From Prevotella sp. (lineage in GTDB: Bacteria; Bacteroidota; Bacteroidia; Bacteroidales; Bacteroidaceae), in assembly GCA_017469955.1 (NCBI GenBank), contig JAFUFJ010000014.1, positions 1 to 64,000 of the forward strand: a stretch of 64,000 nucleotides of DNA. The letters are read 5' to 3'. Every line of letters starts with the position of its first letter. Position 1 is the first letter of the stretch. The notes beneath the pieces are model-generated. The model had not been told where the DNA came from, did no database searches, and saw only the letters and a program-made list of their open reading frames with translations. Positions 2,199 through 60,437 of the stretch are shown here, piece after piece. The translations under genes and the position numbers were made by a program.

Positions 2199-2264
2199 GT
2201 ATCATTCGTACATGCCAGGTGTATCATTCGTACATCAGCATGGTATGCTTCGTACATGCCACAT
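2199..2264. repeat. 22-bp array, family 1 (TCGTACAT)
   Basis: TCGTACAT occurs at 2206, 2228 and 2250, exactly 22 bp apart, within three similar 22-bp units at 2199-2220, 2221-2242 and 2243-2264. Weaker relatives extend the register to either side: TCATACAC at 2184, and GTACGATGTGC from 2265. Each unit has a GTA...TAC dyad. The array lies between the start of the TIGR04076 gene (2066) and the stop of the thioredoxin gene (2296). The period is not a multiple of three and no frame through it looks coding. Confidence 0.8.
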
Positions 2265-2295
2265 GTACGATGTGCAAAGACGCACCTTTCCTCTG

Positions 2296-2805
2296 TCATT
2301 TCGGCTTGGTTGCCACGGCTTCGGGCGTCCAGTTCTGGAAGAAGCGAAGCACTTTTTCCTTACTATACCCCTTTCCTTCCTCAAGAAAACTTGAGTCTTG
2401 AATGTGAATGACTTGGCCTTCAGCGTCAAGAACGACAAACACAGGGAAGCCAAAGCGTGCCGGATTGCCCAGACGTCTCAGCATTTCCGATGTTTTCTCT
2501 GCCATATCCGGTCCTGACGACTTGCGAGGATTGTAATTGACATGGATATATACAAAATTCTTGTCGATGACATCACTGATAGCAGTGTCATTCTGAATGA
2601 AGTCTGCAAACCGCAAACACCATATGCACCAGTTGCCACCAACTTGACATACTACAAACTTTTCTTCTGATTTCGCCGTTGACATAGCCAGGTCAATTTG
2701 CTCTAACGGATCTATGTCCTCGTTATATACCCTTTTCAACTCAGTCTGTGCCTGTAACGTATTTGAAAAAAACAGGCAAAACGCCGCAACTAACAAGGTT
2801 CTCAT
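2296..2805 (-). CDS. Exported thioredoxin-fold protein, CIWC motif
   Basis: The 169-residue protein starts with a signal peptide (MRTLLVAAFCLFFSNTLQAQ, cleavage near 20) and has a thioredoxin fold with the redox pair C60-I-W-C63 and a cis-proline at P121 (FGFPVF). It therefore probably acts in the periplasm as a thiol-disulfide oxidoreductase. Its layout (long helix before GGNWC, then DFIQND) resembles thioredoxin_7-type proteins rather than TlpA/ResA. A further conserved-looking cysteine, C53, precedes the active site. The substrate is unknown. The gene stands alone. Confidence 0.78.
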   Translation of the reverse strand: MRTLLVAAFCLFFSNTLQAQTELKRVYNEDIDPLEQIDLAMSTAKSEEKFVVCQVGGNWCIWCLRFADFIQNDTAISDVIDKNFVYIHVNYNPRKSSGPDMAEKTSEMLRRLGNPARFGFPVFVVLDAEGQVIHIQDSSFLEEGKGYSKEKVLRFFQNWTPEAVATKPK

Positions 2806-3001
2806 CGTTCAATTCTATTCTTTTATCAACAACCGTATTTCATCTATATTGGCCTTTCCCCCACCGAAAGATGTCTCCATTTTTACTTTCCTCCGCACGG
2901 GATATAGACACGAATATACCAAATCATCCAGGCCCCAGTGCCGTATTTACCGACACGGAATCTGGATGATTGCACTGCTTCTATTTGATGATTACAAACG
3001 T

Positions 3002-3493
3002 TTATTTATTACCAAAAAATGCCTTCAGTTTCTTCCAGAACCCAGTCTTTTGAACTTCTTCGGCAGCATCTTCAACAAAATTCTCGACTTTGCCGACACT
3101 TTCTTCAACAAACTCGCGAACTTTCTTGGCTTCTTCACTATTAGCCAAGTCTTCAACTTTCTCTTTTACAGCCTTCAACGTTTCGTTTTCGCTGATATCG
3201 TCAAAGGCCTTTTCCACCTTTTCCTTCACATCGTTGAACGTCTCCGCAGCCTTTTCCTTCAAATCCTCGACCTTCTCCATGGCCTCAGCCTTTACCTCTT
3301 CAAAGGTTTTCTCTGCGCCGGCTTTTACTTCTTCAATCTTCTCCGTGACCGTGTCCTGCACATTCTCCACCTTTTCCTTTACTTCTGCCTCTACATTTTC
3401 AGCCACAGTCTGAGCTTCAGCCTTTGTTTCTTCAACAACATTCTCTGCCTGCTCCTGTGCTTCTTCGGCAATGTTTTTTACTTCGTCATTCAT
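3002..3493 (-). CDS. Highly charged helical protein, LEA/apolipoprotein-like
   Basis: The 163-residue product is almost entirely Glu, Lys, Ala and Val in repeating 11-residue amphipathic blocks such as VKEKVENVQDT and VEDLKEKAAET. This is the pattern of LEA group 3 proteins and apolipophorins. It lacks a signal peptide. The last dozen residues (GFWKKLKAFFGNK) switch to a cationic, aromatic amphipathic helix that could contact membranes. A role in surface coating or stress protection is inference from composition only. Low complexity makes homology calls unreliable. It has its own promoter and about 70 nt of 5' leader. Confidence 0.75.
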   Translation of the reverse strand: MNDEVKNIAEEAQEQAENVVEETKAEAQTVAENVEAEVKEKVENVQDTVTEKIEEVKAGAEKTFEEVKAEAMEKVEDLKEKAAETFNDVKEKVEKAFDDISENETLKAVKEKVEDLANSEEAKKVREFVEESVGKVENFVEDAAEEVQKTGFWKKLKAFFGNK

Positions 3494-3571
3494 AGATTTA
3501 TACTATAAAAGGTAGCGCCTACTCCCTTTCAAGCGGTTCGGCCTTTTCTTTTTTGCTGTTATATACGTATG

Positions 3572-3602
3572 CAAAGCTACGAAAAATAGTTTATTACGCC
3601 AA
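3572..3602 (-). promoter_or_regulatory. Bacteroidetes promoter for the helical-protein gene
   Basis: On the minus strand, TTG (3600-3602) is followed by 20 bp and TAGCTTTG (3572-3579), matching the TTTG-N19-21-TAnnTTTG form used by the Bacteroidetes primary sigma factor. It implies a leader of roughly 70 nt before the start at 3493. Confidence 0.6.
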
Positions 3603-3775
3603 GAAAAATACGAAAATAAAAGTATCTCAGATGAAAAAGTTTCAAAATATACACTCACATACCCATAGGCAAACCAAATATTAAGAGATTGCGAAAAACA
3701 GTCGTGTCCTGTCAAAAGAGTGAGAGGAAGCTATTTGTCCAAGTCGAAAATCCGAAAAAGTTTACATCAGAAACC
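3603..3775. other. AT-rich divergent intergenic DNA
   Basis: This is the middle of a 322-bp gap between divergent genes. Apart from the promoters annotated at each side I see only AT-rich sequence, with no repeat, hairpin or convincing reading frame. Confidence 0.5.
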
Positions 3776-3806
3776 TTGTACATCAGAATTTAAATTTGTA
3801 TTTTTG
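3776..3806 (+). promoter_or_regulatory. Promoter very close to the DUF1294 start
   Basis: TTG (3776-3778), 20 bp, then TATTTTTG (3799-3806); an overlapping TAAATTTG lies at 3791-3798. The ATG follows at 3816, only 9 bp after the -7 box, so the mRNA should have a leader of a few bases or none. Confidence 0.6.
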
Positions 3807-3815
3807 CAACCAAGT

Positions 3816-4391
3816 ATGAAACACCTTGTCATTTATCTTTTTGTAGTTAATGTTGTTGCTTTCTTGACTTATGGATGGGATAAGTGGAAGGCTCAGCACA
3901 AGAAATGGCGCATTTCAGAGGGCAATCTGCTGTGGTTGGCTGCCATTGGAGGTAGTCTCGGGGCACTGTTCGCTATGATATGCTTCCGCCACAAGACCCG
4001 ACATCCAAAGTTCAAATATGGAATTCCTTTAATATTAATGCTCCAAATTTCGCTATTTCTCTTAATATCATGTAAATCAACAAAAGAAGTTGTTTCCATT
4101 ACACCAAAAGAACAAGCGTCTGATATCGGAGCTTTTTCTCCTACTACCCTAATCATCATGTACGATCAGGGCATTGGAAAAGAAGCGCTTCTAAAAGCCG
4201 TCAAAGAATACAAGGCTGAAATTATCTACGACTACCACACCATTTCTGGCATAGCCATCAAAAAGCCAAAAGACAAGACTATTGAGGAAACTATTGAACT
4301 TTTCAAAGCCATACAAGGAGTCATTGCTGTTGAACGCGACCGCATTATCCAGCTTACCGACCCTGTCAGGCCACAACTTTTGGAGAAATGA
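3816..4391 (+). CDS. DUF1294 membrane protein fused to an I9-like domain
   Basis: The start at 3816 (MKHLVIYLF) gives 191 residues. Residues 1-75 are a DUF1294 domain with two hydrophobic segments around the conserved WDKWKAQ and RHKTRHPKFKYG motifs. Most DUF1294 proteins end near here. This one continues with a third hydrophobic stretch ending in a lipobox-like LLISC (82-86), then a domain (110-180) with the outline of subtilisin propeptide/inhibitor I9 folds, ending GVIAVERD. It reads like a DUF1294 protein joined to a small lipoprotein. Function is unknown. The stop overlaps the next start (ATGA), so the two genes are co-translated. Confidence 0.7.
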   Translation: MKHLVIYLFVVNVVAFLTYGWDKWKAQHKKWRISEGNLLWLAAIGGSLGALFAMICFRHKTRHPKFKYGIPLILMLQISLFLLISCKSTKEVVSITPKEQASDIGAFSPTTLIIMYDQGIGKEALLKAVKEYKAEIIYDYHTISGIAIKKPKDKTIEETIELFKAIQGVIAVERDRIIQLTDPVRPQLLEK

Positions 4392-4876
4392 ATATCAGAA
4401 AAGCTACAGATGCCGATCTTTCCGTGGTTTTAAGCCTGCGAGACAAGGCACGAGAAATCATGAGACATAGCGGAAACCCCGACCAATGGCCTATAGGATA
4501 TCCCAAAGAAAGCGTTTTTGCAAAAGACATCAATGAGGGGAACTGCTATATCATCGAGGATGAAGACGGTGCCTCTGTTGCAACTTTTTCCTTCATCCCC
4601 GGCCAAGACATCACTTACCAGACGATCAAAGGCGAATGGCTTGACGACGAGCTTCCCTATTATACCATCCACCGAATCGCAAGTAACGGAGCCTGTTCTG
4701 GCATTTTCCAGACAATCATCGACTTCTGTTCCTCCCGAACTAACAACATTCGCATTGACACACATCGTGACAATGCCATCATGAGACACCTGCTGTCCCA
4801 TACAGGTTTCTCCTATTGCGGCATCATCTGGCTTGCCAATGGCGAAGAGCGACTGGCTTTTCAAAAGCTATTTTGA
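4388..4876 (+). CDS. GNAT family N-acetyltransferase
   Basis: The 162-residue protein has the GNAT outline: IRKATDADL at the N-terminus, a central strand VATFSFIPGQD, the partly degenerate acetyl-CoA loop region (IASNGACSGIFQTII, about 98-112) and the C-terminal IRIDTHRDNAIMRHLL then GFSYCGI. The RIDTH.DN.. motif is typical of a subgroup common in Bacteroidetes and Firmicutes. The acceptor substrate cannot be predicted. Its ATG overlaps the previous stop by four bases. Confidence 0.82.
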   Translation: MNIRKATDADLSVVLSLRDKAREIMRHSGNPDQWPIGYPKESVFAKDINEGNCYIIEDEDGASVATFSFIPGQDITYQTIKGEWLDDELPYYTIHRIASNGACSGIFQTIIDFCSSRTNNIRIDTHRDNAIMRHLLSHTGFSYCGIIWLANGEERLAFQKLF

Positions 4877-4885
4877 GCCCAACCG

Positions 4886-5206
4886 TTACTCAGAAGGTTC
4901 TTGAAAATAGTTTACCTTCTTGCCACAACGTGTTGCATAGGCTATCTCACGCCGGGTGCTCTCGCCAATATAGCCATTGACATTCACAACATATATCTCG
5001 TCGGCAAGGTCTATTTTTCGCAGATGCATCTCGTCAAGCATATCTTTTACCCCAGGCTTCCACACGTCATTGTCGCCAGAATGACCAAAAAGACCTACGC
5101 TGATAACAATGTTTCCCTCAAGAGTCAACCGCTTTTGCACCTCCATAAAAGCATCTTTAAAACGAGTACTTCCACAAAGTGTTATAACTTTATAATTCCC
5201 TATCAT
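4886..5206 (-). CDS. DUF4406 / nucleoside deoxyribosyltransferase-like protein
   Basis: This is a 106-residue cytoplasmic protein with the CGSTRFKDAF motif near the N-terminus, DEMHLRKIDLADEIYVVN and GYIGESTRREIAYA. These match the nucleoside 2-deoxyribosyltransferase-like Rossmann fold (DUF4406). The family is thought to bind nucleotides or nucleosides; the reaction of this branch is not established. It is convergent with the GNAT gene, 9 bp away, and has no partner in the same direction. Confidence 0.78.
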   Translation of the reverse strand: MIGNYKVITLCGSTRFKDAFMEVQKRLTLEGNIVISVGLFGHSGDNDVWKPGVKDMLDEMHLRKIDLADEIYVVNVNGYIGESTRREIAYATRCGKKVNYFQEPSE

Positions 5207-5355
5207 GGCTTCTTTATTGCATGTTTACTACCGCAAAGATAATGAATACGATGGACATTTCCTTGTTTTTCATTCAAAAAAAACAAAAAACTGATGTCAT
5301 TCTAAAGGAAAAACTGCTAACTTTGCAGCCATCAACTCTCTGAATACAGACTATA

Positions 5356-6159
5356 ATGGGCATCATCAAAATCAAATCTTTACATCATTCTGGCATTGAT
5401 ATCTTCCACAATCTCACCGAAGCACAGCTACGAAACAGCTATGAAAACGGAAAGGGAATCTTCATTGCCGAGAGTCCCAAGGTCATCAACGTTGCCTTAA
5501 ATGCCGGATATCAACCAATAGCTCTGCTCTGCGAAGAGAAGCATATCACCGGTGATGCAGCAGACATCATAAAGACATGTGGTGACATTCCCGTCTACAC
5601 CGGCGAGCGAGACACCTTGGCTACACTGACAGGCTACACACTAACCCGTGGTGTTTTGTGCGCGATGCACCGCCCTGTCCTGCCGTCTATAGAAGACATA
5701 TGCCAGAATGCCCATAGAATCGTAGTGATTGACGGAGTTGTTGACACCACTAATATCGGAGCCATCTTCCGCGCAGCAGCTGCCCTTGGCATCGACGCCG
5801 TTCTCCTTACTCCCACATCATGCGACCCTCTCAACCGAAGAGCAGTAAGGGTTTCGATGGGTTCTGTTTTCCTTGTCCCATGGACTTGGCTTGTCAATGG
5901 CATTGACCAACTTCACCATTTAGGTTTTCAAACAGCAGCAATGGCCTTGTCAGACGATTCCATTGACATTGACAATCCTCAGTTACTCCAAGAAGAACGC
6001 CTTGCAATTATCATGGGAACAGAAGGTGAAGGACTCTCTGAAGAAACCATCAAGCGAGCCGACTATGTGGTCAAGATCCCCATGTTCCACCAAGTCGACT
6101 CGCTTAATGTTGCATCTGCTGCAGCCATAGCATTTTGGCAATTGCGCAAGAAAAGATAG
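5356..6159 (+). CDS. TrmH/SpoU-family RNA 2'-O-methyltransferase
   Basis: The 267-residue SPOUT enzyme has an N-terminal substrate-binding domain (about 1-105) and the three SpoU motifs: DTTNIGAIFRAAAALG, IIMGTEGEGLS and SLNVASAAAIAFWQL. It should transfer a methyl group from SAM to a ribose 2'-OH in rRNA or tRNA; the exact nucleotide cannot be told from sequence. A -7 box TAACTTTG lies at 5318-5325, but no clear -33 element is visible. It is convergent with the HU/LysM gene downstream. Confidence 0.88.
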   Translation: MGIIKIKSLHHSGIDIFHNLTEAQLRNSYENGKGIFIAESPKVINVALNAGYQPIALLCEEKHITGDAADIIKTCGDIPVYTGERDTLATLTGYTLTRGVLCAMHRPVLPSIEDICQNAHRIVVIDGVVDTTNIGAIFRAAAALGIDAVLLTPTSCDPLNRRAVRVSMGSVFLVPWTWLVNGIDQLHHLGFQTAAMALSDDSIDIDNPQLLQEERLAIIMGTEGEGLSEETIKRADYVVKIPMFHQVDSLNVASAAAIAFWQLRKKR

Positions 6160-6209
6160 CCAGCAGGCCTTTCGCAACGCACTCTCTGTTGCGCACGACA
6201 GGCTTTTGC

Positions 6210-7640
6210 CTATTTCGTTGTATTCCGTTTTTTCAGTTCAAGTTTCGGAATGTTCACTTTGTCCCCTTCTTTTACCGAAGTAACTCCTTTGTTGACAGCC
6301 TCGACATAGCACTCCATGCCGGCACCAAGATGTGCCTTGCTGATCATCGAAAGGGTCTGTCCTTTCAGGACCGTCACCGTTTTGTCAATGCCAACGATGC
6401 GATACGCCCCCAGCCTTACCCTTGGATCACTATCATATTCACCGTCTGAAACAGCCTTTTTAGTGGTTGATTCCGGAGTTGCCTTTGGCTTCGATGCAGT
6501 TGTAGGGGCAGACTGCTTGGCCACCGGCGTTGTGGAAGCTGCCGACGTTGACTGAGATGACGGGGCGGTCTTCTCCGCTTCATTCTTCTCTTTGCCTTCC
6601 TCTGTCGGCTGTTGTTCTTTCAATTCGCCAGAAACTTTTTCTTCAGGTTCTCCAGCTTCCTGGGCAATCTCATCTGAATCTTCTTGATCCAGCAGCTCTT
6701 CTTCCGCAACATTTCCCTGAGACTTCTTCTCTGCAGTCACAATCTGTGCTACGAGATGCTCTATCCGATTGTCGCGACATTTCATCTGAGAACCCAGATA
6801 TACTGCGCTTCCTACGCCTGTAATAAGCAATATCACCAAAGCTGCTATTAGCCATTTCAGCAGAGATACGCAACGATTCAGACGAATTTCCAGATCAGCT
6901 TTCTCTGCCTTTGCGTCTTTTAGTTCTTCACGCAAATACAAGATTTCTTCGTGTTCCATATTAGATATTTTTTTTGTTAATTGTTCCTCCATTTCATATT
7001 CTGGATGCGATTCCGTCTTTTCCGCACCTGACACCCCAACAGGAACGTCAGGTTCTGATGCATTTTCCAGAAGTTCCGCTTCCGATTTTCCTTCTTGACG
7101 GTCAGCATTCACCAGAGCCGTCATCTCCCATCCTGCAATGCTTTCTGCCTGTTCCTTTTCGATGTGTTTCTCCTTTTCAACAGAAACAGGCTCAGATGCT
7201 GTCGAAAAGAGTGGTTCGGCCTTTGCTTGGGAAGTTTCTTTCCCAAGCACATCCATGCTGTTTTCTTCGGTCTTCTCTTCCGTTTCATCCTCCAGATATT
7301 TCTCGTCAATCTGCGAGAAGTCTACGCCATCAGAAAGTACCACCGTCTCAAACTGGGCAAACGGGCTGTTCACCCTGTCTCTCATAGAGGCTTCCGGTGT
7401 GAATGTTATCTTGTCTCTGCTGTCGATGGTGATGCGTTCTCCTGTCGTCACGTCAATGCTTTCCCGCGCACTCACAGTGGTCACTTTGAATGTCCCGAGC
7501 CCTTTTATCTTGACTAATTTCTCATATTGGAGTGCCTCGTTCAGCACTTCAACCATCGTGGAGATGAAAGACTCAGCTTCTTTCGCGTCAATATCATACC
7601 GTTCGGCGATGGCCTTTGCCATTGATGTGATTCTACTCAT
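6210..7640 (-). CDS. HU domain - transmembrane - LysM-like fusion protein
   Basis: The 476-residue protein joins three parts. Residues 1-90 are an HU/IHF-type DNA-binding domain (IKGLGTFKV, TTGERITIDSRDKITFTP). An acidic linker and short coiled coil (about 225-255) follow, then one transmembrane segment (about 259-283, LLKWLIAALVILLITG). After a low-complexity Ser/Thr/Pro/Lys stretch, residues 412-467 form a LysM-like module (YRIVGIDKTVTVLKGQTLSM, GDKVNIPKLEL). If topology follows this layout, the HU end faces DNA and the LysM end faces peptidoglycan. Its start overlaps the upstream HU gene by 8 bp. Similar HU-led proteins occur in related Bacteroidetes, but the role is unknown. Confidence 0.85.
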   Translation of the reverse strand: MSRITSMAKAIAERYDIDAKEAESFISTMVEVLNEALQYEKLVKIKGLGTFKVTTVSARESIDVTTGERITIDSRDKITFTPEASMRDRVNSPFAQFETVVLSDGVDFSQIDEKYLEDETEEKTEENSMDVLGKETSQAKAEPLFSTASEPVSVEKEKHIEKEQAESIAGWEMTALVNADRQEGKSEAELLENASEPDVPVGVSGAEKTESHPEYEMEEQLTKKISNMEHEEILYLREELKDAKAEKADLEIRLNRCVSLLKWLIAALVILLITGVGSAVYLGSQMKCRDNRIEHLVAQIVTAEKKSQGNVAEEELLDQEDSDEIAQEAGEPEEKVSGELKEQQPTEEGKEKNEAEKTAPSSQSTSAASTTPVAKQSAPTTASKPKATPESTTKKAVSDGEYDSDPRVRLGAYRIVGIDKTVTVLKGQTLSMISKAHLGAGMECYVEAVNKGVTSVKEGDKVNIPKLELKKRNTTK

Positions 7641-7926
7641 CGGCTATCTCTCCATTCTTTAGTCTGTCTTTAATATATCCTGTCGGACGGAAATTCAGCA
7701 CCAGTTTGGGCGGAACCATCATGCGCTGACCTGTAGAAGGGTTGACAAGTATTCGCTCCAGACGTTTCTTTACCTCAAATGTTCCAAAGGAAGGTATCTG
7801 TACACTCTCCCCTTTGTCAAAACTTTCTCCCATTGCTTCAATGGCCGTTCTGACAAAGTTCTGCACAACATTCTTGTTGTAACCCGAACGCTGAGACAAT
7901 TCTGCTATAAATTCCTTGTTGTTCAT
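7633..7926 (-). CDS. HU family DNA-binding protein
   Basis: The 97-residue protein is a complete HU/IHF-type nucleoid protein: N-terminal helical dimer region (NNKEFIAELSQRSGYNKNVV), the turn QIPSFGTFEVKKR, and the DNA-wrapping arm with RILVNPSTGQRMMVPP followed by VLNFRPTGYIKDRL. The arm proline region is intact. It overlaps the next gene by 8 bp and lies 58 bp after rimO, in the conserved Bacteroidetes order ftsY-rimO-HU-HU. Confidence 0.92.
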   Translation of the reverse strand: MNNKEFIAELSQRSGYNKNVVQNFVRTAIEAMGESFDKGESVQIPSFGTFEVKKRLERILVNPSTGQRMMVPPKLVLNFRPTGYIKDRLKNGEIADE

Positions 7927-7984
7927 ATCTTGTGTTATCTAAAGGAAACAATGCTTGGCCGAAGGCCACTCTTGCGCAATTCTC

Positions 7985-9286
7985 TTATACGACTTCTCCA
8001 TAGAGGTCGAATTCCTCGGCACCGGTGATGCGCACTTGGTAGAACCTTCCTCTTTGAAGTCTTCGGTTTCCGGCAGGAATAAGCACTTCAGGATCAACCT
8101 CCGGCGAGCTAAACTCTGTGCGTCCTATATAATAGTCGCCTTCCTTTCTGTCGACAATCACCTTCATCTCCTGCCCTATTTTTTCTGCTTCCAGTTCTGC
8201 ACTGATGCGCTGTTGCAGGAGCATCAGCCTGTCCAGCCGCTCTTGTTTCTTGTCATTGGGCACGTCATCTGCATAGTGTTGCGCGCTGTAGGTGCCGTCT
8301 TCCTCTGAATAGGCGAAGGCTCCCATGCGTTCAAAGCGTACCGTACGTACGAATTCCATCAGCTCTTCAAAGTCATCTTCGGTCTCTCCGGGGAATCCAA
8401 CCATCAGGGTTGTGCGCAGGGAGATGCCCGGAACCCGGCGTCTTATCTCGCCTATCAGCTCCAGAGTCTCTTGCTTTGTGACGTGCCGATGCATTCTTGA
8501 GAGCATATTGTCGGAGATGTGTTGCAGGGCAATGTCAAGATATTTACACACGTTTGGCTTTTCTCTCATCGCGTCAAGCAGGCCCATAGGGAACTGGTTG
8601 GGATAGGCATAATGCAGGCGGATCCACTCGACGCCCTCAATATCTGCCATCTTCGATATCAGCTCTGTGATGTGTTCTGCTCCGTCAATGTCGCGGCCAT
8701 AGTAGGTCAGTTCTTGGGCAATAACCTGAAATTCCTTCACACCCTGCCCCACCAGCATTCTCACTTCCGACAGAACCTCATCCATCGGCCTGCTTCGATG
8801 GCGACCTGTGATAAGGGGAATGGCACAATAGGCGCAGTGCCGGTCGCATCCTTCACTGATTTTTATATAGGCATAATGGGCCGGAGTCGTCAGGTGTCTT
8901 GCATATGGAACTGCCGTCTGCCGGTGTCTTTCGTCCTCTTTCAGGTCGTTCAAGAGTTCCCTGTAGTTGAACTTTCCATAGTATTTGTCGACCTCTGGCA
9001 ATTCGTTTTCCAGGTCGGCCAGATAGCGTTCAGACAGGCATCCCATGACAAACAGTTTCTTGATGCGGCCTTTTCGCTTGGCTTCGGCAAACTCAAGTAT
9101 CGTGTCAATGCTCTCCTGCTTGGCGTCTTCGATGAACCCACAGGTGTTGATGACAACGATTTCTCCGTGCGGACGCTTGGCATCATGCGTACAGACATAG
9201 CCGTTTGCCTCCATCAGTCCCATCAGCATCTCGCTGTCAACGAGGTTCTTCGAGCATCCAAGTGTTATGATGTCAATCGTCTTCAT
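7985..9286 (-). CDS. rimO: Ribosomal protein S12 methylthiotransferase RimO
   Basis: The 433-residue radical-SAM enzyme adds a methylthio group to an aspartate of ribosomal protein S12. It has the N-terminal MTTase domain (TLGCSKNLVDSE, with further cysteines in NTCGF and MGCLSERY), the radical-SAM triad CDRHCAYC, and a C-terminal TRAM domain. Start 9286 (MKTIDII) is chosen because AGAGAG sits at SD distance upstream; in-frame ATGs at 9292 and 9319 are less likely, and 9319 would overlap ftsY. It lies 29 bp after ftsY. Confidence 0.96.
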   Translation of the reverse strand: MKTIDIITLGCSKNLVDSEMLMGLMEANGYVCTHDAKRPHGEIVVINTCGFIEDAKQESIDTILEFAEAKRKGRIKKLFVMGCLSERYLADLENELPEVDKYYGKFNYRELLNDLKEDERHRQTAVPYARHLTTPAHYAYIKISEGCDRHCAYCAIPLITGRHRSRPMDEVLSEVRMLVGQGVKEFQVIAQELTYYGRDIDGAEHITELISKMADIEGVEWIRLHYAYPNQFPMGLLDAMREKPNVCKYLDIALQHISDNMLSRMHRHVTKQETLELIGEIRRRVPGISLRTTLMVGFPGETEDDFEELMEFVRTVRFERMGAFAYSEEDGTYSAQHYADDVPNDKKQERLDRLMLLQQRISAELEAEKIGQEMKVIVDRKEGDYYIGRTEFSSPEVDPEVLIPAGNRRLQRGRFYQVRITGAEEFDLYGEVV

Positions 9287-9315
9287 GCGCATCTCTCTGG
9301 CTATGGGCGGGCTTA

Positions 9316-14769: not shown

Positions 14770-14781
14770 CAACAGAAGTGA

Positions 14782-52048: not shown

Positions 52049-52081
52049 TGCAATTCCTTTCATTTACAATTATCCGGTTTG

Positions 52082-52444: not shown

Positions 52445-52492
52445 TTCCTTTGTTGTTGCTTTGTCTTTTTGACGTTGTCGTTTTTGAAAAGT

Positions 52493-53038
52493 TTAATCGT
52501 GTTGATTAAAAAAATCTGTTATCTTCTTAACTGCCAGATGATAGCTTGCCTTCAGGGCTCCCTCACTTGTGCCCAGAATCTTGCTTATCTCAGAATATTT
52601 CATTTCATCGAAATAACGGAGAGTAAAGACGGTTCGCTGGACATCCGGAAGCAGGGCAATGGCCTCCTGCAGCAAGGCCTGAGCTTCATCGCCGTTGAAA
52701 TAATCATCAGCCAACAGGCGGTTGGCCACCGAAATGTCTTCGTCGGCACTCATGGAACGCTGGCTTTTCTGCTTACGCAAGAAATCAAGCGATTCGTTGA
52801 CGGCTATGCGATAGAGCCATGTGGAGAGCTTGGATTTCCCCTGGAATTCATCTATATTCAACCACGCCTTAATGAATACATTCTGCAAGACGTCATTTGC
52901 GTCGTCATGAGTCACGACAAGTTTACGAATCTTCCAATACAGCTGTTCACTGTATTCCTGAACCACGAGAGAGAAAGCCTGTCGCTGTTTCGCCGGGTCA
53001 GATAGTTGCTGAAGAGTCGTTTTCTCGTCGAATGTCAT
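52493..53038 (-). CDS. ECF RNA polymerase sigma factor
   Basis: The 181-residue protein has region 2 (THDDANDVLQNVFIKAWLN, FQGKSKLSTWLYRIAVNESLD) and region 4 (LPDVQRTVFTLRYFDEMKY, SEISKILGTSEGALKASYHLA) typical of RpoE-like ECF sigma factors. It would be released by the membrane-bound anti-sigma-like protein downstream. The start overlaps the stop of the L,D-transpeptidase gene by four bases. The regulon cannot be deduced here. Confidence 0.92.
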   Translation of the reverse strand: MTFDEKTTLQQLSDPAKQRQAFSLVVQEYSEQLYWKIRKLVVTHDDANDVLQNVFIKAWLNIDEFQGKSKLSTWLYRIAVNESLDFLRKQKSQRSMSADEDISVANRLLADDYFNGDEAQALLQEAIALLPDVQRTVFTLRYFDEMKYSEISKILGTSEGALKASYHLAVKKITDFFNQHD

Positions 53039-54573
53039 TCCATATAGTTCTTAAGGTATCGGCTGATGACCCGATCATAGCCATAGACATCAGGATAAGT
53101 CCGCAACGTGCCATCGGCATCGGGGAAAATAGTATAATAGGTTATAAACACCGGAATCTCTGGTTTAAGCGGCAAAGACGACAGCATCTTGCTCTTATCG
53201 ATAGAACTGTCAGCGTCAGCTGACCTGAGGTCTACCTTGGTAGAATACCTGATTTTCTCCATTGTCTGAGGATTCTTGTCGGCTAAAAGAAAGAATGCCA
53301 TGTCAAGCGGGCGCTCCAGGCGGACACATCCATGGGAAACTGCGCGGTTGTCTCGTCCGAATACGCCAGGTGAATTGGTGTCATGGAGATAGACTGCGAA
53401 GTCATTATCAAACCTGAATATAATGCGACCAAGCGAGTTTCCTGCCCCTCGCTCCTGGGCTACCATATAGTTAGTGTTCTTCAATATCTCTGGAGTAAGA
53501 TGTTGAGGCTGAATAGTATCACCTGTCTGGCGGTTACGTATGAAGTAATGATTGCGTGCAAAGTAGGCACTATCGCCAACATGTGCCATCACTTCTTTTT
53601 CGATAATGCTTCGAGGAATTATCCAAAGAGGGTTCATTTCAATACGCTTAATGTGGCTGGCAAGTAACGGTGTTTTAGTACGATTGGCACCACATGCAAT
53701 CTTCATCGATATCGTTGTGTCACGGTCGTAGGCCCAAACCCTGAAGGAAGGGATGTTGACAACCACCCGTTTCCTGTGATTTTCGGGCGAGTCAAGCTGA
53801 CGCCAACGGCTCCTTTCCATGTTGCATAGCAAACGAAGCCTGTCCGATTGATCTGTCGTCGTAGCCAAGCGTTGCTGATATTTCGCAAAAAGAGGCGACT
53901 GAGGACGACATGACTCGATAAAGAAAAGCATGGAGTCTGTCGCAGCTGCATGAATGGCCTGGGCATAGAAAGAACTGTCTGGGTGTTCGATGGGGGTGTC
54001 AAATATACGACGATAGACAATTTTCCCAGGGTATTTGTCGTCACGGTCAAGCCGGTTGAGAATGTATTCAGGATTCATATAGCCATAACGTTCTCCTACG
54101 ACAAGGCGCAGATAGCCCTTGGTAAGGTTGTATTCCAAACGGGCCAACACCTTATTTATATTATAACGGGAATCATCGAACTGAAGCGAGTCAAGGTGGC
54201 TTAGATCTGAACGCAGCTGGTCTGCCATGAATTTTGATGGGGAAAAGCCACTTCTTGCGACACTTTCAAGCGACACGAGGAAAGTATCTACCAATTGAGG
54301 ATAGATATTTTCTGCCGTTATCCAGAGAAAAGGGTTTCTACCTTTATAATACTTACGGACTTGGTAATCAGCGACAAGCGTATCCTTGTCATGGTTTGAA
54401 AGGGAGTCAATCAACTGACGAATAACCGATTCGTCACTTGTCAAGGCTTCGTCATGTAGTACTCCCCATGTCGCCATGGTTATATTCTGACGACTATCAT
54501 CACCCTTTTCATGGCATGCAATGAGACAACTGACCACAAAAAGAAGCGAAAGAGCGAGGAGATTTCTTCTCAA
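53035..54573 (-). CDS. L,D-transpeptidase lipoprotein, YcbB-like
   Basis: The 512-residue protein has a lipobox (VVSCLIAC, Cys about 20) and a large N-terminal domain followed by a YkuD catalytic domain: VNIPSFRVWAYDRD and the catalytic NRAVSHGCVRLERPLD (Cys in HGC). It would make 3-3 crosslinks in peptidoglycan or anchor proteins to it. Length and the SHGCVRLE motif fit the YcbB/LdtD group. It overlaps the sigma-factor gene by four bases, linking wall metabolism with the envelope-stress module. Confidence 0.9.
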   Translation of the reverse strand: MRRNLLALSLLFVVSCLIACHEKGDDSRQNITMATWGVLHDEALTSDESVIRQLIDSLSNHDKDTLVADYQVRKYYKGRNPFLWITAENIYPQLVDTFLVSLESVARSGFSPSKFMADQLRSDLSHLDSLQFDDSRYNINKVLARLEYNLTKGYLRLVVGERYGYMNPEYILNRLDRDDKYPGKIVYRRIFDTPIEHPDSSFYAQAIHAAATDSMLFFIESCRPQSPLFAKYQQRLATTTDQSDRLRLLCNMERSRWRQLDSPENHRKRVVVNIPSFRVWAYDRDTTISMKIACGANRTKTPLLASHIKRIEMNPLWIIPRSIIEKEVMAHVGDSAYFARNHYFIRNRQTGDTIQPQHLTPEILKNTNYMVAQERGAGNSLGRIIFRFDNDFAVYLHDTNSPGVFGRDNRAVSHGCVRLERPLDMAFFLLADKNPQTMEKIRYSTKVDLRSADADSSIDKSKMLSSLPLKPEIPVFITYYTIFPDADGTLRTYPDVYGYDRVISRYLKNYME

Positions 54574-54584
54574 AAGGATCTGTT

Positions 54585-54893
54585 TTACTTGATAGAAATC
54601 TTTCTAACAGTCTTCCCGACCTTTACAATATAGCAACCTTTGGTCAGATCAAGATTGATGTATTTATCTGGACCATCAACCTTATAGTTCTGAACACAAA
54701 CACCAGCGACATTATAGATCTTGACAACTTCGCCTTGAGCTCCCGTTACATGAAGTACATTGCCTTCAACAGTAATCGAGATTTCCTGGAAGTCATTCTC
54801 TATAATCTCAATGGCATTACCTGCTTGCATTGTCATAGGATTCCCTAAAAGCAATACCGAGGAAAATACTATAGTTAGTAACGTTTTTGTCAT
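54585..54893 (-). CDS. Small exported protein made of a T9SS-type C-terminal domain
   Basis: The 102-residue protein has a signal peptide (MTKTLLTIVFSSVLLLGNP..A) and then only a beta-rich module, VKIYNVAGVCVQNYKV and IVKVGKTVRKISIK, closely resembling the Por-secretion sorting domain at the C-terminus of type IX substrates, though no passenger domain precedes it. Start 54893 is taken because the upstream extension is basic and unlike a signal. It lies 12 bp from the L,D-transpeptidase gene. Function unknown. Confidence 0.7.
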   Translation of the reverse strand: MTKTLLTIVFSSVLLLGNPMTMQAGNAIEIIENDFQEISITVEGNVLHVTGAQGEVVKIYNVAGVCVQNYKVDGPDKYINLDLTKGCYIVKVGKTVRKISIK

Positions 54894-54996
54894 ACGCCTG
54901 CATTTAAAAGTACAAGTCATTAATAATTAGCGCAAAGTTAATGATTTTCAACCATAATACGATGGTCTATTTGCAGAAAACAGCAACTAATTATGA

Positions 54997-55914
54997 TTAT
55001 TTAACATCAAACACCTGCTGCTCGGCAGCCAGATCTGTGTTTTCAAACTCCTCACGTGCTTGCCGAAGAAGGGCTGTCTCGTCATCATAACGAGCACTGA
55101 AATGACCTATCACAAGGTGTCCAACTCCCGCACAACGCGCAACCTTTCCTGCCTCACGAGCCGTGCTATGAAAATAGAAACCTGCACGATCTGCACGGTC
55201 GTCAGCATATGTGGCCTCATGATACAACAGGTTAACCCCTTTAATCATTTCGTGTAAACGAGGAATATATCGGGTATCGCTACAATAAGCATACGACCTT
55301 GCCAAGTCAGCTGGGCGCGTAAGTCGCTCAGAAGGGATAACTTCGCCATCGGGAGTCGTCCATGAACTACCGTTTTTTATATTGTTGATTTGAGAAACAG
55401 GTATTTGATAAAAGTCGATCATCTCTCGACGAATGTGAGGGAGACCTTGTTTTTCACGGAAAAGAAAGCCACAACACGGGACACGATGTTCAAGAGGTAT
55501 TGTCTCAACCATGAGGCTACGGTCTTCATATATGGTCTTTTTTTGCTCTGTATCTATGCCATGGAACTCCACTTCATATTCCAAATTAGGGCAAAACATC
55601 TCAAGTTGAGATTTGAGCATTGGGCCAAGTGCTGGGTGAGCATACACATGAAACTTCTGCGTCCTTCCTAACATTCCGAATGTGGAAATCATGCCAACCA
55701 AGCCAAGACAATGATCGCCATGCAGATGAGAGATGAAAACTGCCGTCAAGTTGGCAAAACTTATACGAGAACGTCGCATGGCAATCTGAGTACCCTCTCC
55801 ACAATCAATCATAAAAGACTTTCCCCTAACCTCAACAACTTGTGAAGACGCATAATGTTTGGGAGTGGGCAAAGCGCTTCCACAGCCTAAGATATGTACT
55901 CTGAACGGCTCCAT
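54997..55914 (-). CDS. rnz: Ribonuclease Z
   Basis: The 305-residue metallo-beta-lactamase-fold enzyme trims the 3' ends of tRNA precursors. It shows ILGCGSALPTPKHYASSQVV, DCGEGTQIAMRRS, the zinc motif FISHLHGDHCLGLVG, YHEATYADDRADRAG and VIGHFSARY. All metal ligands are present. It is 2 bp after the lipoprotein gene. Confidence 0.95.
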   Translation of the reverse strand: MEPFRVHILGCGSALPTPKHYASSQVVEVRGKSFMIDCGEGTQIAMRRSRISFANLTAVFISHLHGDHCLGLVGMISTFGMLGRTQKFHVYAHPALGPMLKSQLEMFCPNLEYEVEFHGIDTEQKKTIYEDRSLMVETIPLEHRVPCCGFLFREKQGLPHIRREMIDFYQIPVSQINNIKNGSSWTTPDGEVIPSERLTRPADLARSYAYCSDTRYIPRLHEMIKGVNLLYHEATYADDRADRAGFYFHSTAREAGKVARCAGVGHLVIGHFSARYDDETALLRQAREEFENTDLAAEQQVFDVK

Positions 55915-55916
55915 TA

Positions 55917-56477
55917 TTACTGTAATCGTTTGTAGACAAATATACCATTGTCATTCTCCAAAAACAGGGAATCGGCATTGAGTGCCACAATGTCAAACGT
56001 GTCCCTGTCAAAAAGAAGCTGGCCATTCATGATTTTCCACGAAGTCCACGACTTTGACTCTGTGGCCACATTCGACTGTACGACCCCACCTTCCTGGATC
56101 TCAAAATTCTTGTCAAGACTCGTCCAATGTCCTAATAATGACGTCAAATTAACGATAAGGCTGGCACAAGAATCACCATATTCGTCGATGCCACGAAGCA
56201 CTGCCACCCGATCTCCGACCATCAGTCCGCCACGAGTCACCTGATCTTCTCCCGTATTGTAGCTGTAAATAAGCGTATCGCCATCATTTGTTATCAGCTC
56301 AAGGGAGTGCATTGACGTTCCGTCTCCACAGACTCCATAGTATGTAGTATCCAAAACTTCCTCTTCAATTGTTTCGTCTACGAGAGGTTCTGCCTGCTGA
56401 CCACGGGGAGAAGGCTGACACGCAACGATTAAAACGAGTAGTGTCAACATTCTTGAAAAGTGTTTAAATTTTTCCAT
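55917..56477 (-). CDS. Lipoprotein, lipocalin-like
   Basis: The 186-residue protein has a lipobox (LVLIVACQPS, Cys about 20), an acidic linker and a beta-rich domain with SLELITNDGDTLIYSYNTGE and LGHWTSLDKNFEIQEGGV, suggesting a small lipocalin-like barrel. I cannot assign a ligand. An ATG 21 bp further upstream gives a longer form; 56477 (MEKFKHF) is preferred because the signal peptide starts there. It sits between mazG and rnz. Confidence 0.68.
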   Translation of the reverse strand: MEKFKHFSRMLTLLVLIVACQPSPRGQQAEPLVDETIEEEVLDTTYYGVCGDGTSMHSLELITNDGDTLIYSYNTGEDQVTRGGLMVGDRVAVLRGIDEYGDSCASLIVNLTSLLGHWTSLDKNFEIQEGGVVQSNVATESKSWTSWKIMNGQLLFDRDTFDIVALNADSLFLENDNGIFVYKRLQ

Positions 56478-56565
56478 ATTTAAGACTATATGTTTCACAT
56501 TCGCAGTATTTTCACTATTTCATTCATCCCTCACAAGGCAAGATCTGAACAGGAAGAGCTCATAA

Positions 56566-57420
56566 TTAGTTTTTTTCCTGCGCTTTAGCTTCATTCCACA
56601 GTTCGTCCATTTCCTGCAATGTCATGTTTGTTAGAGGCTTCCCGATACGAATAGAATGTTCTTCCACATAATTAAAACGACGTATAAACTTCTGGTTTGT
56701 TGCTTCTAATGCATTATCAGGATTAAGCTTGTAGAGGCGAGCCGCATTGATAACAGAGAAAAGAAAGTCGCCCAATTCCTGTAAAGACTTTTCCTTATCC
56801 TCACGCTTCAATTCCACTTCCAGCTCATCCAACTCCTCGCGAACTTTCTTCCACACGTCATTCTTTTCCTCCCAGTCAAACCCTACATTGCGAGCTTTGT
56901 CCTGGATGCGATATGCTTTGATAAGGCTTGGGAGGGAATTTGGAACTCCCGACAACACTCGTTTATTCCCGTCCTTTTCTTTCAATTTTATTTGTTCCCA
57001 ATTCTGCAGCACCTCTCCTACTGTTTTTGCATCTTGGAATTCCGTATGATCCAGTTCCTCTCCATAGGGCAACGGTTTGGGCTCTTTGGCTCCGACTTGT
57101 GAAGAATGATAGACATGTGGATGGCGGAATATGAGTTTATCTGCCGACCGATTGCACACATCGGCAATGTCAAAATCGCCTTTCTCCTCACCTATCTTGG
57201 CATAAAAGCAAATATGTAGCAGCACATCGCCCAACTCCTTGCAGATTTCATTTTTATCTTCCTTCATCAAAGCATCGGCCAGTTCAAATGTTTCCTCTAT
57301 AGTGTTCGGCCGAAGGCTTTCGTTTGTCTGCTTTCTATCCCATGGACATTTCTCTCTTAGAGTATCGAGAACATCCAGATAACGGCCAAAAGCCGCCATT
57401 TTTTCTTCCCGTGTATGCAT
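56566..57420 (-). CDS. mazG: Nucleoside triphosphate pyrophosphohydrolase MazG
   Basis: The 284-residue protein has two MazG-type domains: LREKCPWDRKQTNESLRPNT with EICKELGDVLLHICFYA, and the second with LQELGDFLFSVINAARL. The EExxE/D-type metal-binding motifs are visible. It removes non-canonical or excess nucleoside triphosphates. It starts the minus-strand run toward truA and is divergent from valS. Confidence 0.92.
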   Translation of the reverse strand: MHTREEKMAAFGRYLDVLDTLREKCPWDRKQTNESLRPNTIEETFELADALMKEDKNEICKELGDVLLHICFYAKIGEEKGDFDIADVCNRSADKLIFRHPHVYHSSQVGAKEPKPLPYGEELDHTEFQDAKTVGEVLQNWEQIKLKEKDGNKRVLSGVPNSLPSLIKAYRIQDKARNVGFDWEEKNDVWKKVREELDELEVELKREDKEKSLQELGDFLFSVINAARLYKLNPDNALEATNQKFIRRFNYVEEHSIRIGKPLTNMTLQEMDELWNEAKAQEKN

Positions 57421-57521
57421 ATTTATTTAAATTTATGTTGCAAAAGTACTAATTTCTGACGGGAAAATAGTAACTTTGCACCGTTTTTTACACGTATAAT
57501 TCATAAAATTAAAAATATTGT

Positions 57522-60224
57522 ATGGAATTAGCAAGTAAATACGATCCGAAAGTTGTCGAATCGAAATGGTACCAATATTGGTTAGATAACAAACTGTTTT
57601 CCAGCAAGCCAGATGGTCGTGAACCGTATACCATCGTCATCCCGCCCCCTAACGTAACTGGTGTGCTTCACATGGGACACATGCTAAACAACACCATCCA
57701 AGACATTCTCGTCCGCCGTGCCCGTATGGAAGGAAAGAATGCCTGCTGGGTGCCTGGAACCGACCATGCTTCTATTGCTACAGAAGCAAAGGTGGTGAAA
57801 AAACTGGCTGAACAAGGCATAAAGAAGCATGACCTGACCCGAGAGGAGTTCCTAAAGCACGCATGGGACTGGACTGATGAGCACGGAGGAATCATCCTGA
57901 AACAACTACGCAGGCTCGGAGCCTCATGCGATTGGGACCGTACTGCCTTTACGATGGATGAGAAGCGTTCAAGAAGTGTCATAAAAGTTTTTGTAGACTT
58001 ATACAACAAAGGGCTCATCTATCGTGGTCTGCGCATGGTGAATTGGGATCCGAAAGCCCTTACCGCCCTTTCCACAGAAGAGGTCATTTATAAGGAAGAG
58101 CATTCAAAACTCTACCATTTAAAATACTATGTTGCCGACTTAGAGGCCCTGAAGGATATCGAAGCCCTTACCGAATCGGGCAACATCATCCATAAAGATG
58201 AGAAGGGATTTTATGCCGTGGTTGCCACAACCCGCCCGGAAACCATCATGGGCGACACAGCCATGTGTATCAATCCAAAGGACCCCAAGAACCAATGGCT
58301 CAAAGGACGCAAGGTGATTGTTCCGCTGGTGGGTCGAGTAATCCCTGTCATTGAAGACCGTTATGTCGACATTGAGTTCGGAACGGGCTGTCTGAAGGTC
58401 ACGCCTGCCCATGACACTAACGACTATATGCTGGGAAAGACCCATCACCTTGAGACCATCGACATCTTCAATCCCGACGGCACCATTAGCGAACAGTCTC
58501 CTCTTTACGTTGGAATGGACCGCTTCGCATGCAGAAAGCAAATCGTAAAAGACCTGGAAGCTGCCGGTCTTTTGGAAAAGGTCGAGGACTACAACAATAA
58601 GGTTGGATATTCCGAGCGCAACCCGGATACGGCAATAGAGCCACGTCTCTCGCTCCAATGGTTCCTCCGCATGAAGCATTTTGCTGACATAGCACTGCCA
58701 CCAGTCATGAACGACGAAATCAAGTTCTATCCTGAAAAATACAAAAACACCTACAAAAACTGGCTTGAGAACATACAAGACTGGTGTATCTCCCGGCAGC
58801 TATGGTGGGGGCATCGCATCCCGGCCTACTATTACAACGAAAATAATGACTTCGTCGTAGCCGAGACACGTGAAGAAGCACTGACGCTTGCACAGCAGAG
58901 AGATCCGCAGGTTACCGACGCCGACTTGCGTCAGGATAACGACGCCTTAGACACTTGGTTCAGTTCCTGGCTATGGCCCATCAGTCTGTTTGACGGCATT
59001 AACAATCCGAACAACGAAGAGTTGTCGTACTATTATCCCACCAGTGACCTGGTGACCGGCCCCGACATCATCTTCTTCTGGGTGGCCCGCATGATTATGG
59101 CCGGCTACGAATATGTAGGCAAGATGCCGTTCAAGCATGTCTATTTCACAGGCATCGTACGCGACAAGCTTGGCCGCAAGATGTCAAAGAGCCTTGGCAA
59201 CAGTCCCGACCCCATCGAACTTATCGAGAAGTTCGGTGCCGATGGTGTGCGTATGGGCATGATGCTCTCCGCGCCAGCAGGCAACGATATCCTCTTCGAC
59301 GAAGCCCTGTGCGAGCAAGGACGCAACTTCAACAACAAGATCTGGAATGCCTTCCGCCTCGTAAAAGGATGGAAAGTTGAAGACATTGAGCAACAAGAGG
59401 CCTGCAAGACTGCTGTTACTTGGTTCAGCGCAAAGCTCCGTCAAACCAACGAAGAACTGGACGACCTTTTCTCAAAATACCGCATTTCGGAGGCCCTCAT
59501 GGCTGTTTACAAGCTCTTCTGGGACGAGTTCTCCTCATGGTATCTTGAGATGATCAAGCCCGCATACGTCAATGGTCAGCCACAACCGATTGACCGCACG
59601 ACCTATGAGGCTACTCTCAACTTCTTTGATGCGCTTCTAAAGATGCTTCATCCGTTCATGCCGTTCATCACAGAAGAGCTTTGGCAGGCCTTGCAGGAGC
59701 GCAAGTCAGGAGAAAGCATAATGCGAGAAAAGCTTACTGTTGCCGTCCCGACCGAGGAAGACCGGCAACTGCTCAGTAACATTGAACAAGTCAAGCAGAT
59801 TGTCAGCAGCATCCGTATGGTGCGCAACCAGAAAGGAATTGCCCCTAAAGAGCCATTAACGCTGCAGGCTGTCGGCAGCGATCCATACGAAAAGTTCCAC
59901 GATGTCGTCACTAAAATGGCCAACCTCACGGCAATCACCGTGGTCAAGGAAAAGGACACAACGGCCTCTGCCTTCATGATCGGAACCAATGAATATGCCG
60001 TCCCTCTTGGCGACCTGATCGACGCCGAAGCCGAAATCGCAAAGATGGAAGCCCAGTTGCAGCACCTTGAAGGATTCCTTGCGGGAGTGATGAAGAAACT
60101 CTCCAACGAGCGTTTCGTCCAAAACGCCCCAGAAGCCGTCGTGGCCATGGAGCGGAAGAAGCAGGGCGATGCCGAAGAAAAGATAGCGGCCCTGAAGGAG
60201 TCCATTGCCACTCTGCGCAAGTAG
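57522..60224 (+). CDS. valS: Valyl-tRNA synthetase
   Basis: The 900-residue class I synthetase carries the HIGH-type motif ([14 protein letters not shown]), editing domain ([19 protein letters not shown]), KMSKS loop ([14 protein letters not shown]), anticodon-binding region and a C-terminal coiled coil. A -7 box TAACTTTG lies at 57471-57478, about 45 bp upstream. It is followed by a strong terminator. Confidence 0.97.
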
Positions 60225-60243
60225 TCTGTTCTTCCCTGAATAT

Positions 60244-60285
60244 AAAGCCAGCCTGTTCCTATGAGAAGCAGGCTGGCTTTTTCTT
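60244..60285 (+). terminator. valS terminator
   Basis: AAAGCCAGCCTG (60244-60255) pairs perfectly with CAGGCTGGCTTT (60269-60280), followed by TTCTTG. Confidence 0.9.
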
Positions 60286-60371
60286 GTATCAGAGATGGGG
60301 GTCCTGATGTTACGGTCCTTTTCTCCTTTATAAAGGCAGGTTGTTTGTGCATGAACAACAAGGAATCTCTG

Positions 60372-60437
60372 TGCGAAAGATGATCTATTGCTGTGCAAAA
60401 GATGATGTTTTGGCCAGCAAAAGATGATCTTTTGGTG
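60372..60437. repeat. 22-bp array, family 3, copy c
   Basis: Three 22-bp units start at 60372, 60394 and 60416, with cores GAAAGATGATCTATTG, CAAAAGATGATGTTTTG and CAAAAGATGATCTTTTG (the last a perfect 17-base palindrome). Weaker units may extend the register to 60328 and 60459. It lies in the 313-bp gap between the convergent valS and DUF3078 genes, between their two terminators. Confidence 0.88.

What the first reader, a model, noticed from the sequence alone, without database searches (positions are those of the whole stretch)
2199..60437. Nine intergenic arrays of four unrelated families share a 22-bp period
Arrays at 2199-2264, 10422-10526, 17258-17367, 25626-25735, 37189-37255, 41693-41846, 48587-48696, 49710-49819 and 60372-60437 lie only between genes. 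Their sequences fall into four families, yet seven step by exactly 22 bp and the two family 2 arrays by 20-22 bp, about two DNA helical turns; several have five units. In families 2-4, A-tracts and T-tracts alternate about one turn apart, the arrangement expected to bend DNA. Units generally form one imperfect dyad. A shared architecture without shared sequence suggests selection on shape or on a repeated dimeric site.
Basis: partly seen in the sequence, partly recalled or inferred. Interest (0 to 1): 0.85.

Follow-up and report, generated by a model that had tools for sequence, protein, structure and literature searches.

The report
22-bp intergenic arrays on an 11-bp genome lattice
Short DNA arrays repeating every 22 letters sit between the genes of this rumen bacterium, and taken together they lie in step with a faint 11-letter A/T rhythm that runs through nearly all of the chromosome sampled, genes included, which suggests that the shape of the DNA itself is under selection.

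Summary
There, 73 of 80 noncoding arrays have period 22, 44 or 88 bp; five shuffles gave none. Two families dominate; B matches a 110-bp, five-unit profile at 63 places, none mostly inside a called gene. No gap holds two A/B elements (13.7±2.6 expected). Three other species carry unrelated families with 22-bp dyad units. The two window arrays of family 2 are 21 bp and do not belong.

Unexpected: outside A and B elements the A/T grid continues in phase into neighbouring genes. The DNA examined carries an 11.02-bp AA/TT periodicity, phase-coherent in coding DNA at lags up to 4.8 kb, mostly lost beyond 300 bp when synonymous codons are shuffled, and found in 91% of 4-kb windows. A 100-kb sample of single-contig genome G016 has the same period.

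Best reading: the arrays are coding-free peaks of a chromosome-wide helical-phase lattice acting at DNA level. Against: species G224 and G226 have arrays without a clear lattice. Reader protein and function are inferred.

The parts
2199..2264 (.). family C array, three units of 22 bp (dyad of the CATACA..TGTATG type)
17258..17367 (+). family B element, 110 bp, five ordered 22-bp units, convergent gap of 347 bp; the syntenic gaps of L158, L164 and L173 are only 23, 78 and 90 bp
25626..25735 (.). family A array (CAAAAGATSATSTTTTG dyad units), five 22-bp units
37189..37255 (.). family D array, three 21-bp units, about 70 bp from an FopS sRNA gene; not part of the 22-bp class
41693..41846 (.). family A array, three 22-bp units followed in the same register by four degenerate 22-bp units
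48587..48696 (-). family B element, left copy of a 99% identical direct pair
49710..49819 (-). family B element, right copy of the pair
60372..60437 (.). family A array, three 22-bp units, convergent gap
1..64000 (.). 11.02-bp AA/TT lattice across genes and gaps of the window: local amplitude ratio 1.9-7.4 in 30 of 31 overlapping 4-kb windows, 0.6 in the one centred on 32000, which covers the long gene 30528-33821
   Evidence: first 50 kb of the window: period 11.01 at lags 300-1200

Best explanation
The 22-bp arrays of families A and B are the coding-free peaks of a chromosome-wide structural code. SHOWN for the 38% of the genome examined: AA/TT steps (and GG/CC and GC steps, whose relative phase I did not test) recur every 11.02 bp and stay in phase over kilobases, through genes; beyond lags of about 300 bp this rests mostly on the choice among synonymous codons; the A and B arrays, taken as groups, are locked to the phase of the genes around them; their step is two periods, and B is 110 bp, ten periods, so that such a unit can be gained or lost without shifting the phase. 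INFERRED: 11.02 bp is the helical repeat of DNA underwound by about 4.7% from 10.5 bp, so the lattice keeps A/T minor grooves on one face of supercoiled DNA over kilobases, favouring one-sided curvature or one-sided binding by a nucleoid protein. In gaps, with no coding limit, the lattice is written out as dyad-symmetric two-turn units that would act as the strongest docking or wrapping sites, at most one A/B element per gap, preferentially between convergent genes. This resembles in function the BIMEs of enterobacteria (recalled, not tested).
For: Period peak and noncoding bias. B: 63 profile matches, conservation ending sharply at 110 bp, 0 of 63 mostly inside called genes; in the 57 copies scoring over 70 the 20 AA/TT columns depart 0-1 times each while the median column departs 12 times. 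Grid beyond all 63 B elements: right flank of 110 bp, AA at the grid phase 129 times in 315 chances, other phases 11-53; left flank TT 121, other phases 7-49. With controls: in confident genes around B, ratio 1.89 at 110-330 bp and 1.63 at 330-660 bp; around A 1.54 and 1.40; 600 randomly drawn genic AA-N9-TT anchors over 3 kb from elements 1.16, 1.14, 1.10 up to 660 bp; random origins 0.95-1.02. Spectrum: coding peak 11.02-11.03 bp in every lag band from 150 to 4800; synonymous shuffle cuts z from 134 to 13 at lags 600-1200; codon-order shuffle leaves no peak at 11.02. Peak ratio x70.6 for all 864 kb and x51.0 in 461 kb of coding DNA over 1.5 kb from any A/B element, against x0.4-1.1 in three shuffles and x1.8 in 50 kb of E. 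coli; 91% of 210 4-kb windows exceed 2.5, against 0 of 44 in one shuffled contig; 0 of 12 E. coli windows exceed 2. Other genomes: G016 11.02 (x18.4), G225 10.96 (x14.0), G026 11.04 (x5.1). Gap rule: of 96 A/B elements none share a gap, against 13.7±2.6 doubly filled gaps expected (lowest of 3000 trials 7; 10.9±2.5 under a second null); convergent 31 of 73 pairs, others 65 of 423. No significant strand bias of B (15 of 25 sense).
Against: G224 and G226 have many 22-bp arrays but no clear AA/TT lattice (x1.0 and x1.2; G224 has GG/CC x1.9 at 11.03), and G024, G010, G004 have weak ones (x1.5-2.0), so arrays and lattice are not strictly coupled. In six same-genus samples only 6 of 28 noncoding arrays have period 22, and in 80 loci around one orthologous gene 14-bp arrays (25 loci) outnumber 22-bp ones (17 loci). 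Genes carry an 11-bp, not a 22-bp, signal (AA minus TT shows no lasting 22-bp peak in coding). The lattice stands at x51 without the arrays, so the arrays may be a by-product. At short lags (30-150) the synonymous shuffle keeps a strong peak near 11.15, so the short-range part comes from the proteins. Family D is off the lattice. One of 36 family A matches lies in a called gene. Phase locking was shown for groups, not array by array. No reader protein is known. Spectral z values are not calibrated (a shuffled contig reached 10.8 in the 30-300 band), so I rely on the bands above 300, on ratios and on shuffles.
Confidence: 0.5

Rival explanations
1. Selfish intergenic minisatellite elements of the BrickBuilt/MITE/REP kind: a non-autonomous repeat spreads in each species, is tolerated only outside promoters and genes, and amplifies internally by slippage; phase with the lattice is only what survived selection.
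For: Dispersed families with many copies; B found in the own genome and in no other of 200 genus genomes searched (at most four candidates scored per genome); B ends form inverted repeats; short array-free syntenic gaps in some relatives at one place; adjacent family A units more alike than chance at five sites (z 3.4); position nearer the stop (20 of 25 B, 13 of 17 A); near-identical arrays flanking gene modules.
Against: No target duplications at B, same as control; no Y1 transposase in the 75.6% complete genome; copies only 70% identical on average with near-invariant AA/TT columns; the phase continues into genes; no two A/B elements in one gap (target immunity could also give this).
Confidence: 0.25
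2. RNA or single-strand hairpins at transcript ends (bidirectional terminators or mRNA-stabilising structures).
For: Dyad units in all six consensuses; global hairpin in the MFE fold of 45 of 54 B copies; outer mirror words match more than chance (L1-R5 and R1-L5, z 3.1 each); convergent and stop-proximal bias.
Against: No long-range Watson-Crick covariation in 54 B copies: 45 of the 49 column pairs above threshold lie 1-4 columns apart and the other four are not complementary; left and right words of a unit avoid complementarity (L3-R3 0 of 54, z -4.5); no G.U over A.C excess on the sense strand (8 against 16 in co-directional gaps); intrinsic terminators not depleted (22 of 100 flanks with an element, 15 of 128 without); 19 of 84 divergent pairs carry one.
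Confidence: 0.1
3. The lattice is mutational, not selected: DNA is held on one face by a long-lived structure, and damage or repair differs by face, leaving an 11-bp imprint; arrays are the unconstrained extreme.
For: Signal in synonymous sites and gaps alike and in both A+T and G+C steps; it is missing in one window that covers a long conserved gene, which could mean constraint or exposure.
Against: Near-invariant AA/TT columns in B beside freely varying ones, a fixed five-unit layout and dyads are not expected from mutation alone.
Confidence: 0.12

Closest known systems
Persistent DNA-curvature-related ~11-bp A-tract periodicity of prokaryotic chromosomes (PMC3431218, abstract and passages by term search; PMC4132750, start of abstract and three passages)
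   Same: A/T periodicity near 11 bp over most of a chromosome; PMC3431218 names M. hyopneumoniae (10.9 bp) and C. curvus (11.4 bp).
   Different: Here the phase stays coherent to lags of kilobases and discrete 22-bp arrays are locked to it. PMC3431218 measures persistency as the fraction of windows with about the same period; the term search found no mention of Prevotella in either paper.
BrickBuilt MITE of Porphyromonas gingivalis (PMC4596501; abstract, sections 5 and 8 and part 1 of section 7 read)
   Same: Intergenic tandem units of 23 nt, species-limited, dispersed, imperfect units.
   Different: No leader or tail, no IS5-like ends, no target duplication found here; the exact 22-bp step recurs with unrelated sequences; 63 B matches in 864 kb against 19 elements in a genome.
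REP/BIME elements (PMC3733652 in a search listing only; gyrase and IHF binding recalled)
   Same: Extragenic palindromes; place near gene ends (recalled for REPs).
   Different: No Y1 (RAYT) transposase found in the genome; 22-bp step.
C. elegans periodic An/Tn clusters (recalled, no call)
   Same: Long-range phased A/T runs.
   Different: Bacterial, 11.02 bp, within genes largely by synonymous choice.

Membership tests
Persistently periodic prokaryotic chromosome | A/T-run periodicity of about 10-11 bp over most of the chromosome | tested here: met
   91% of 210 4-kb windows over ratio 2.5 at period 11.02, in the 864 kb examined
Persistently periodic prokaryotic chromosome | published MaxMax index of 20 or more | not tested
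   index not computed
BrickBuilt MITE | tandem 22-23-nt units in gaps, many dispersed copies | tested here: met
BrickBuilt MITE | non-repetitive leader and tail bearing terminal inverted repeats like those of IS5 elements | tested here: not met
   B (only family tested): conservation drops to mostly under 0.5 bit outside 110 bp; its ends differ from the TIRs printed
BrickBuilt MITE | target site duplication | tested here: not met
   B only: no excess over control
REP/RAYT | Y1 transposase in the genome | tested here: not met
   0 matches in own genome, which is 75.6% complete; the search rings in 5 of 14 control genomes
REP/RAYT | GTAG or CGTC tag at the foot of the palindrome | not tested
   -
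Intrinsic terminator / RNA hairpin | base-pair covariation | tested here: not met
   outer words of B do match more than chance
Intrinsically curved DNA | A-tracts phased at 10.5 bp in the arrays | tested here: inconclusive
   A z 3.06, B 0.84, C -0.17

The most novel reading that the evidence does not exclude
The chromosome is written on a helical-phase code with kilobase coherence: the cell selects synonymous codons and intergenic DNA together so that A/T steps stay on one face of underwound DNA, read by a continuous one-sided nucleoid structure; the 22-bp arrays are its sequence-free anchoring modules, sized in whole lattice turns, and each lineage rewrites the letters while keeping the step.
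Probability: 0.35. Interest if true: 0.95.

Novelty: new variant of a known kind. Interest (0 to 1): 0.85.

Why it matters
If right, bacterial DNA is patterned in phase over kilobases and across gene borders, so that codon choice, gap design and nucleoid structure are one problem. That makes an old question, why bacterial genomes show 11-bp periodicity, directly testable: insert or remove 5 or 11 bp and look. It would also explain why unrelated repeat families share one step.

Tried and rejected
Whole-array hairpins: the best foldings looked striking but mirror complementarity did not beat unit resampling (A 4.06 against 4.04±0.21; B 1.88 against 2.51±0.19), so they were picked examples; over 70 arrays the native unit order folded no better than permuted orders except in the five longest. 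Complement-swap substitutions (A-T, G-C) lead in own A and B but not in own C, G224, G225 or G226, so they are not a general signature. A-tract curvature as the shared trait: rejected. Terminator role: not supported. REP/RAYT: no transposase found. A 22-bp AA-minus-TT lattice through genes: not seen; genes carry 11 bp. Avoidance of neighbouring gaps by A/B elements: not significant (33 against 36.3±3.7), although neighbours under 4 kb are fewer (0.16 against 0.32±0.04). A lattice-strength measure by period in single gaps gave no clear 22-bp peak. Synteny of a family A gap gave no relative matching both flanking genes next to each other in the listing, so no verdict there.
Full report
SOURCE. 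The window is the first 64 kb of contig C19 of a 2.26-Mb, 22-contig genome, 75.6% complete. The best relatives of one long window protein are Prevotella metagenome genomes, 78-79% identical, most of the listed ones from the rumen or other ruminant gut sites. In 35 same-genus genomes the best DNA matches to a 2.3-kb stretch were 67-72% identical.

OBSERVATION. All nine arrays are there and lie between genes. A scan for periods 8-100 in 864 kb found 80 noncoding arrays: 22 bp 65, 44 bp 6, 88 bp 2, 21 bp 2, others 5; 13 arrays in called genes, one at 22 bp; none in five shuffles of the noncoding DNA. The best lag per gap (z 3.5 or more) was 22 in 88 and 44 in 21 of 313 gaps, and the 244 gaps without a called array still peak at 22 (z 24). 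The two family 2 arrays step by 21 bp; that family has four matches here and weak matches in four of the other genomes among 200 searched (at most four candidates scored per genome). I exclude them.

FAMILIES. Of 70 merged arrays of period 22, 44 or 88, 33 are family A, 23 B, 8 C, 6 other. An ungapped 110-bp profile finds 63 B elements with five ordered units, six of them scoring under 70; no hit in one shuffled copy; none mostly inside a called gene; conservation falls off sharply at both ends. In the 57 better copies the 20 AA/TT columns depart 0-1 times each, the median column 12 times; mean pairwise identity is 0.70. A 66-bp profile of A gives 36 matches, one in a called gene. B was found in the own genome alone among 200 genus genomes; a family A element had short matches of 75-82% in G006, G010, G027 and G030, so A has look-alikes elsewhere.

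OTHER SPECIES. 22-bp noncoding arrays were called in 17 of 80 loci, with unit sequences that differ from species to species. In three species one such array was searched through its own genome: 46, 50 and 21 matches, with 40 of 83, 40 of 125 and 19 of 19 candidates scored. All the loci I then examined (30, 30 and 10) gave a 22- or 44-bp period and none lay mostly in a called gene. All six consensuses have an odd-centred dyad (6 to 8 of 8 pairs, even centres 4 to 5; chance level not computed). In the 66 loci grouped as Prevotella 21 of 358 gaps have best lag 22 or 44, the largest class; among the eight lags listed for 102 gaps in 14 other loci neither appears. Results against a strict rule: 14-bp arrays occur in 25 of the same 80 loci (all surround one orthologous gene, so this may be one site), and in six same-genus samples 6 of 28 noncoding arrays have period 22.

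PLACEMENT. After subtracting element length, 31 of 73 convergent pairs carry an A or B element against 65 of 423 others (base gap of 20 bp or more, odds ratio 4.1; 3.4 and 3.0 with 50 and 100 bp). No gap holds two, against 13.7±2.6 expected within context by length (3000 trials, lowest 7) and 10.9±2.5 with equal chance per gap. In co-directional gaps 20 of 25 B and 13 of 17 A lie nearer the upstream stop; B shows no significant strand bias (15 sense, 10 antisense). At the syntenic gap of array 17258 the space is 23, 78 and 90 bp in L158, L164 and L173, 661, 689 and 662 bp in L155, L156 and L166, and 2356 bp in L076, against 347 bp here.

STRUCTURE TESTS. In 54 B copies 45 of the 49 covarying column pairs above threshold are 1-4 columns apart and the other four are not complementary: short words exchanged as blocks. 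Left and right words avoid being complementary in unit 3 (0 of 54, z -4.5), while the outermost mirror words match more than chance (z 3.1 twice). On balance these results speak against hairpin pairing as the conserved feature.

THE LATTICE. The AA/TT grid of B continues outside the element: right flank of 110 bp, AA at the grid phase 129 times in 315 chances, other phases 11-53; left flank TT 121, other phases 7-49. With controls: B anchors in confident genes give ratio 1.89 (z 13.0) at 110-330 bp, 1.63 (z 13.3) at 330-660, 1.10 at 660-1320 and 0.83 (z -7.7) at 1320-2640, a drift in the sense expected if the period is slightly off 11.00. Family A gives 1.54, 1.40, 1.08, 0.98. Six hundred genic anchors far from elements give 1.16 (0-110), 1.14, 1.10, 0.99, 0.96. 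Random origins stay at 0.95-1.02. The spectrum of AA/TT autocorrelation in coding DNA peaks at 11.03, 11.03, 11.02, 11.02, 11.02 bp in lag bands from 150 to 4800, with z 111, 134, 108 and 73 in the bands 300-600, 600-1200, 1200-2400 and 2400-4800; shuffling synonymous codons leaves 9.7, 13.3, 10.4 and 4.5; shuffling codon order leaves no peak at 11.02. In the 30-150 band the synonymous shuffle keeps a strong peak at 11.15, so the short-range part is protein-borne. These z are uncalibrated: a dinucleotide-shuffled contig gave 10.8 in 30-300 but 2.1 in 300-1200. The ratio to the highest other peak, lags 300-1200, is x70.6 (all DNA), x51.0 (461 kb of coding DNA over 1.5 kb from any A/B element), x0.4-1.1 in three shuffles and x1.8 in 50 kb of E. 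coli; GG/CC and GC steps also peak at 11.02 (x38, x36), relative phase not tested. Other genomes: G016 x18.4 at 11.02, G225 x14.0 at 10.96, G026 x5.1 at 11.04, G010 x2.0, G004 x1.5, G024 x1.5; G009, G224, G226 and four samples of other families x0.4-1.2. In the window the lattice fails in the 4-kb window centred on 32000, which covers gene 30528-33821.

READING. The shared step of families A, B and probably C follows from the lattice: 22 bp is two periods and 110 bp ten. That A and B as groups are locked to the phase of neighbouring genes is shown; that the lattice acts through DNA shape, supercoiling or a one-sided nucleoid protein is inferred from the period. [quoted passage not shown] PMC3431218 (passages) describes chromosomes with persistent signals, such as M. 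hyopneumoniae at 10.9 bp. Against: species G224 and G226 have arrays without a clear A/T lattice, and the lattice does not need the arrays.

LITERATURE. Searches listed no title or abstract reporting these arrays or an 11-bp lattice in Prevotella; the library lacks most subscription papers. BrickBuilt (sections read) is the nearest described repeat; that paper also mentions 22-nt repeats in P. gingivalis W83.

Noticed in passing
window 48587-49819: Two 99% identical family B elements in direct orientation flank a 1-kb module with an AbiEii-like gene and a DUF6922 gene; distant B copies are on average 70% alike. It looks like cassette insertion or duplication at an array.
   Followed up: partly
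G000:C22 37737 and 41172 (L111, L112): A second near-identical direct pair (98%, 98 bp) of chimeric arrays (B first unit, then C units) flanks two genes, one with a C25 peptidase domain.
   Followed up: partly
window 37326-37398 (-): An FopS paralogous sRNA (RF04319, 74.8 bits) lies about 70 bp from a 21-bp family D array.
   Followed up: no
window 30528-33821: The lattice vanishes in the 4-kb window over this long, well-conserved gene; [quoted passage not shown]
   Followed up: no
L001-L080: Noncoding 14-bp arrays were called in 25 of these 80 loci, more than 22-bp ones (17); all loci surround one orthologous gene, so it may be one conserved site.
   Followed up: no
L078 4082-4592: Another species has 21-bp arrays that end in a unit nearly identical to window family D.
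   Followed up: no
G053:C1 about 8231-8298 and 9647-9751 (L209): A genome of another Bacteroidales family has 23-bp arrays, the BrickBuilt unit length.
   Followed up: no
G000:C22 106029-106200 (L115): A chimeric array joins different unit families while keeping the 22-bp register.
   Followed up: partly
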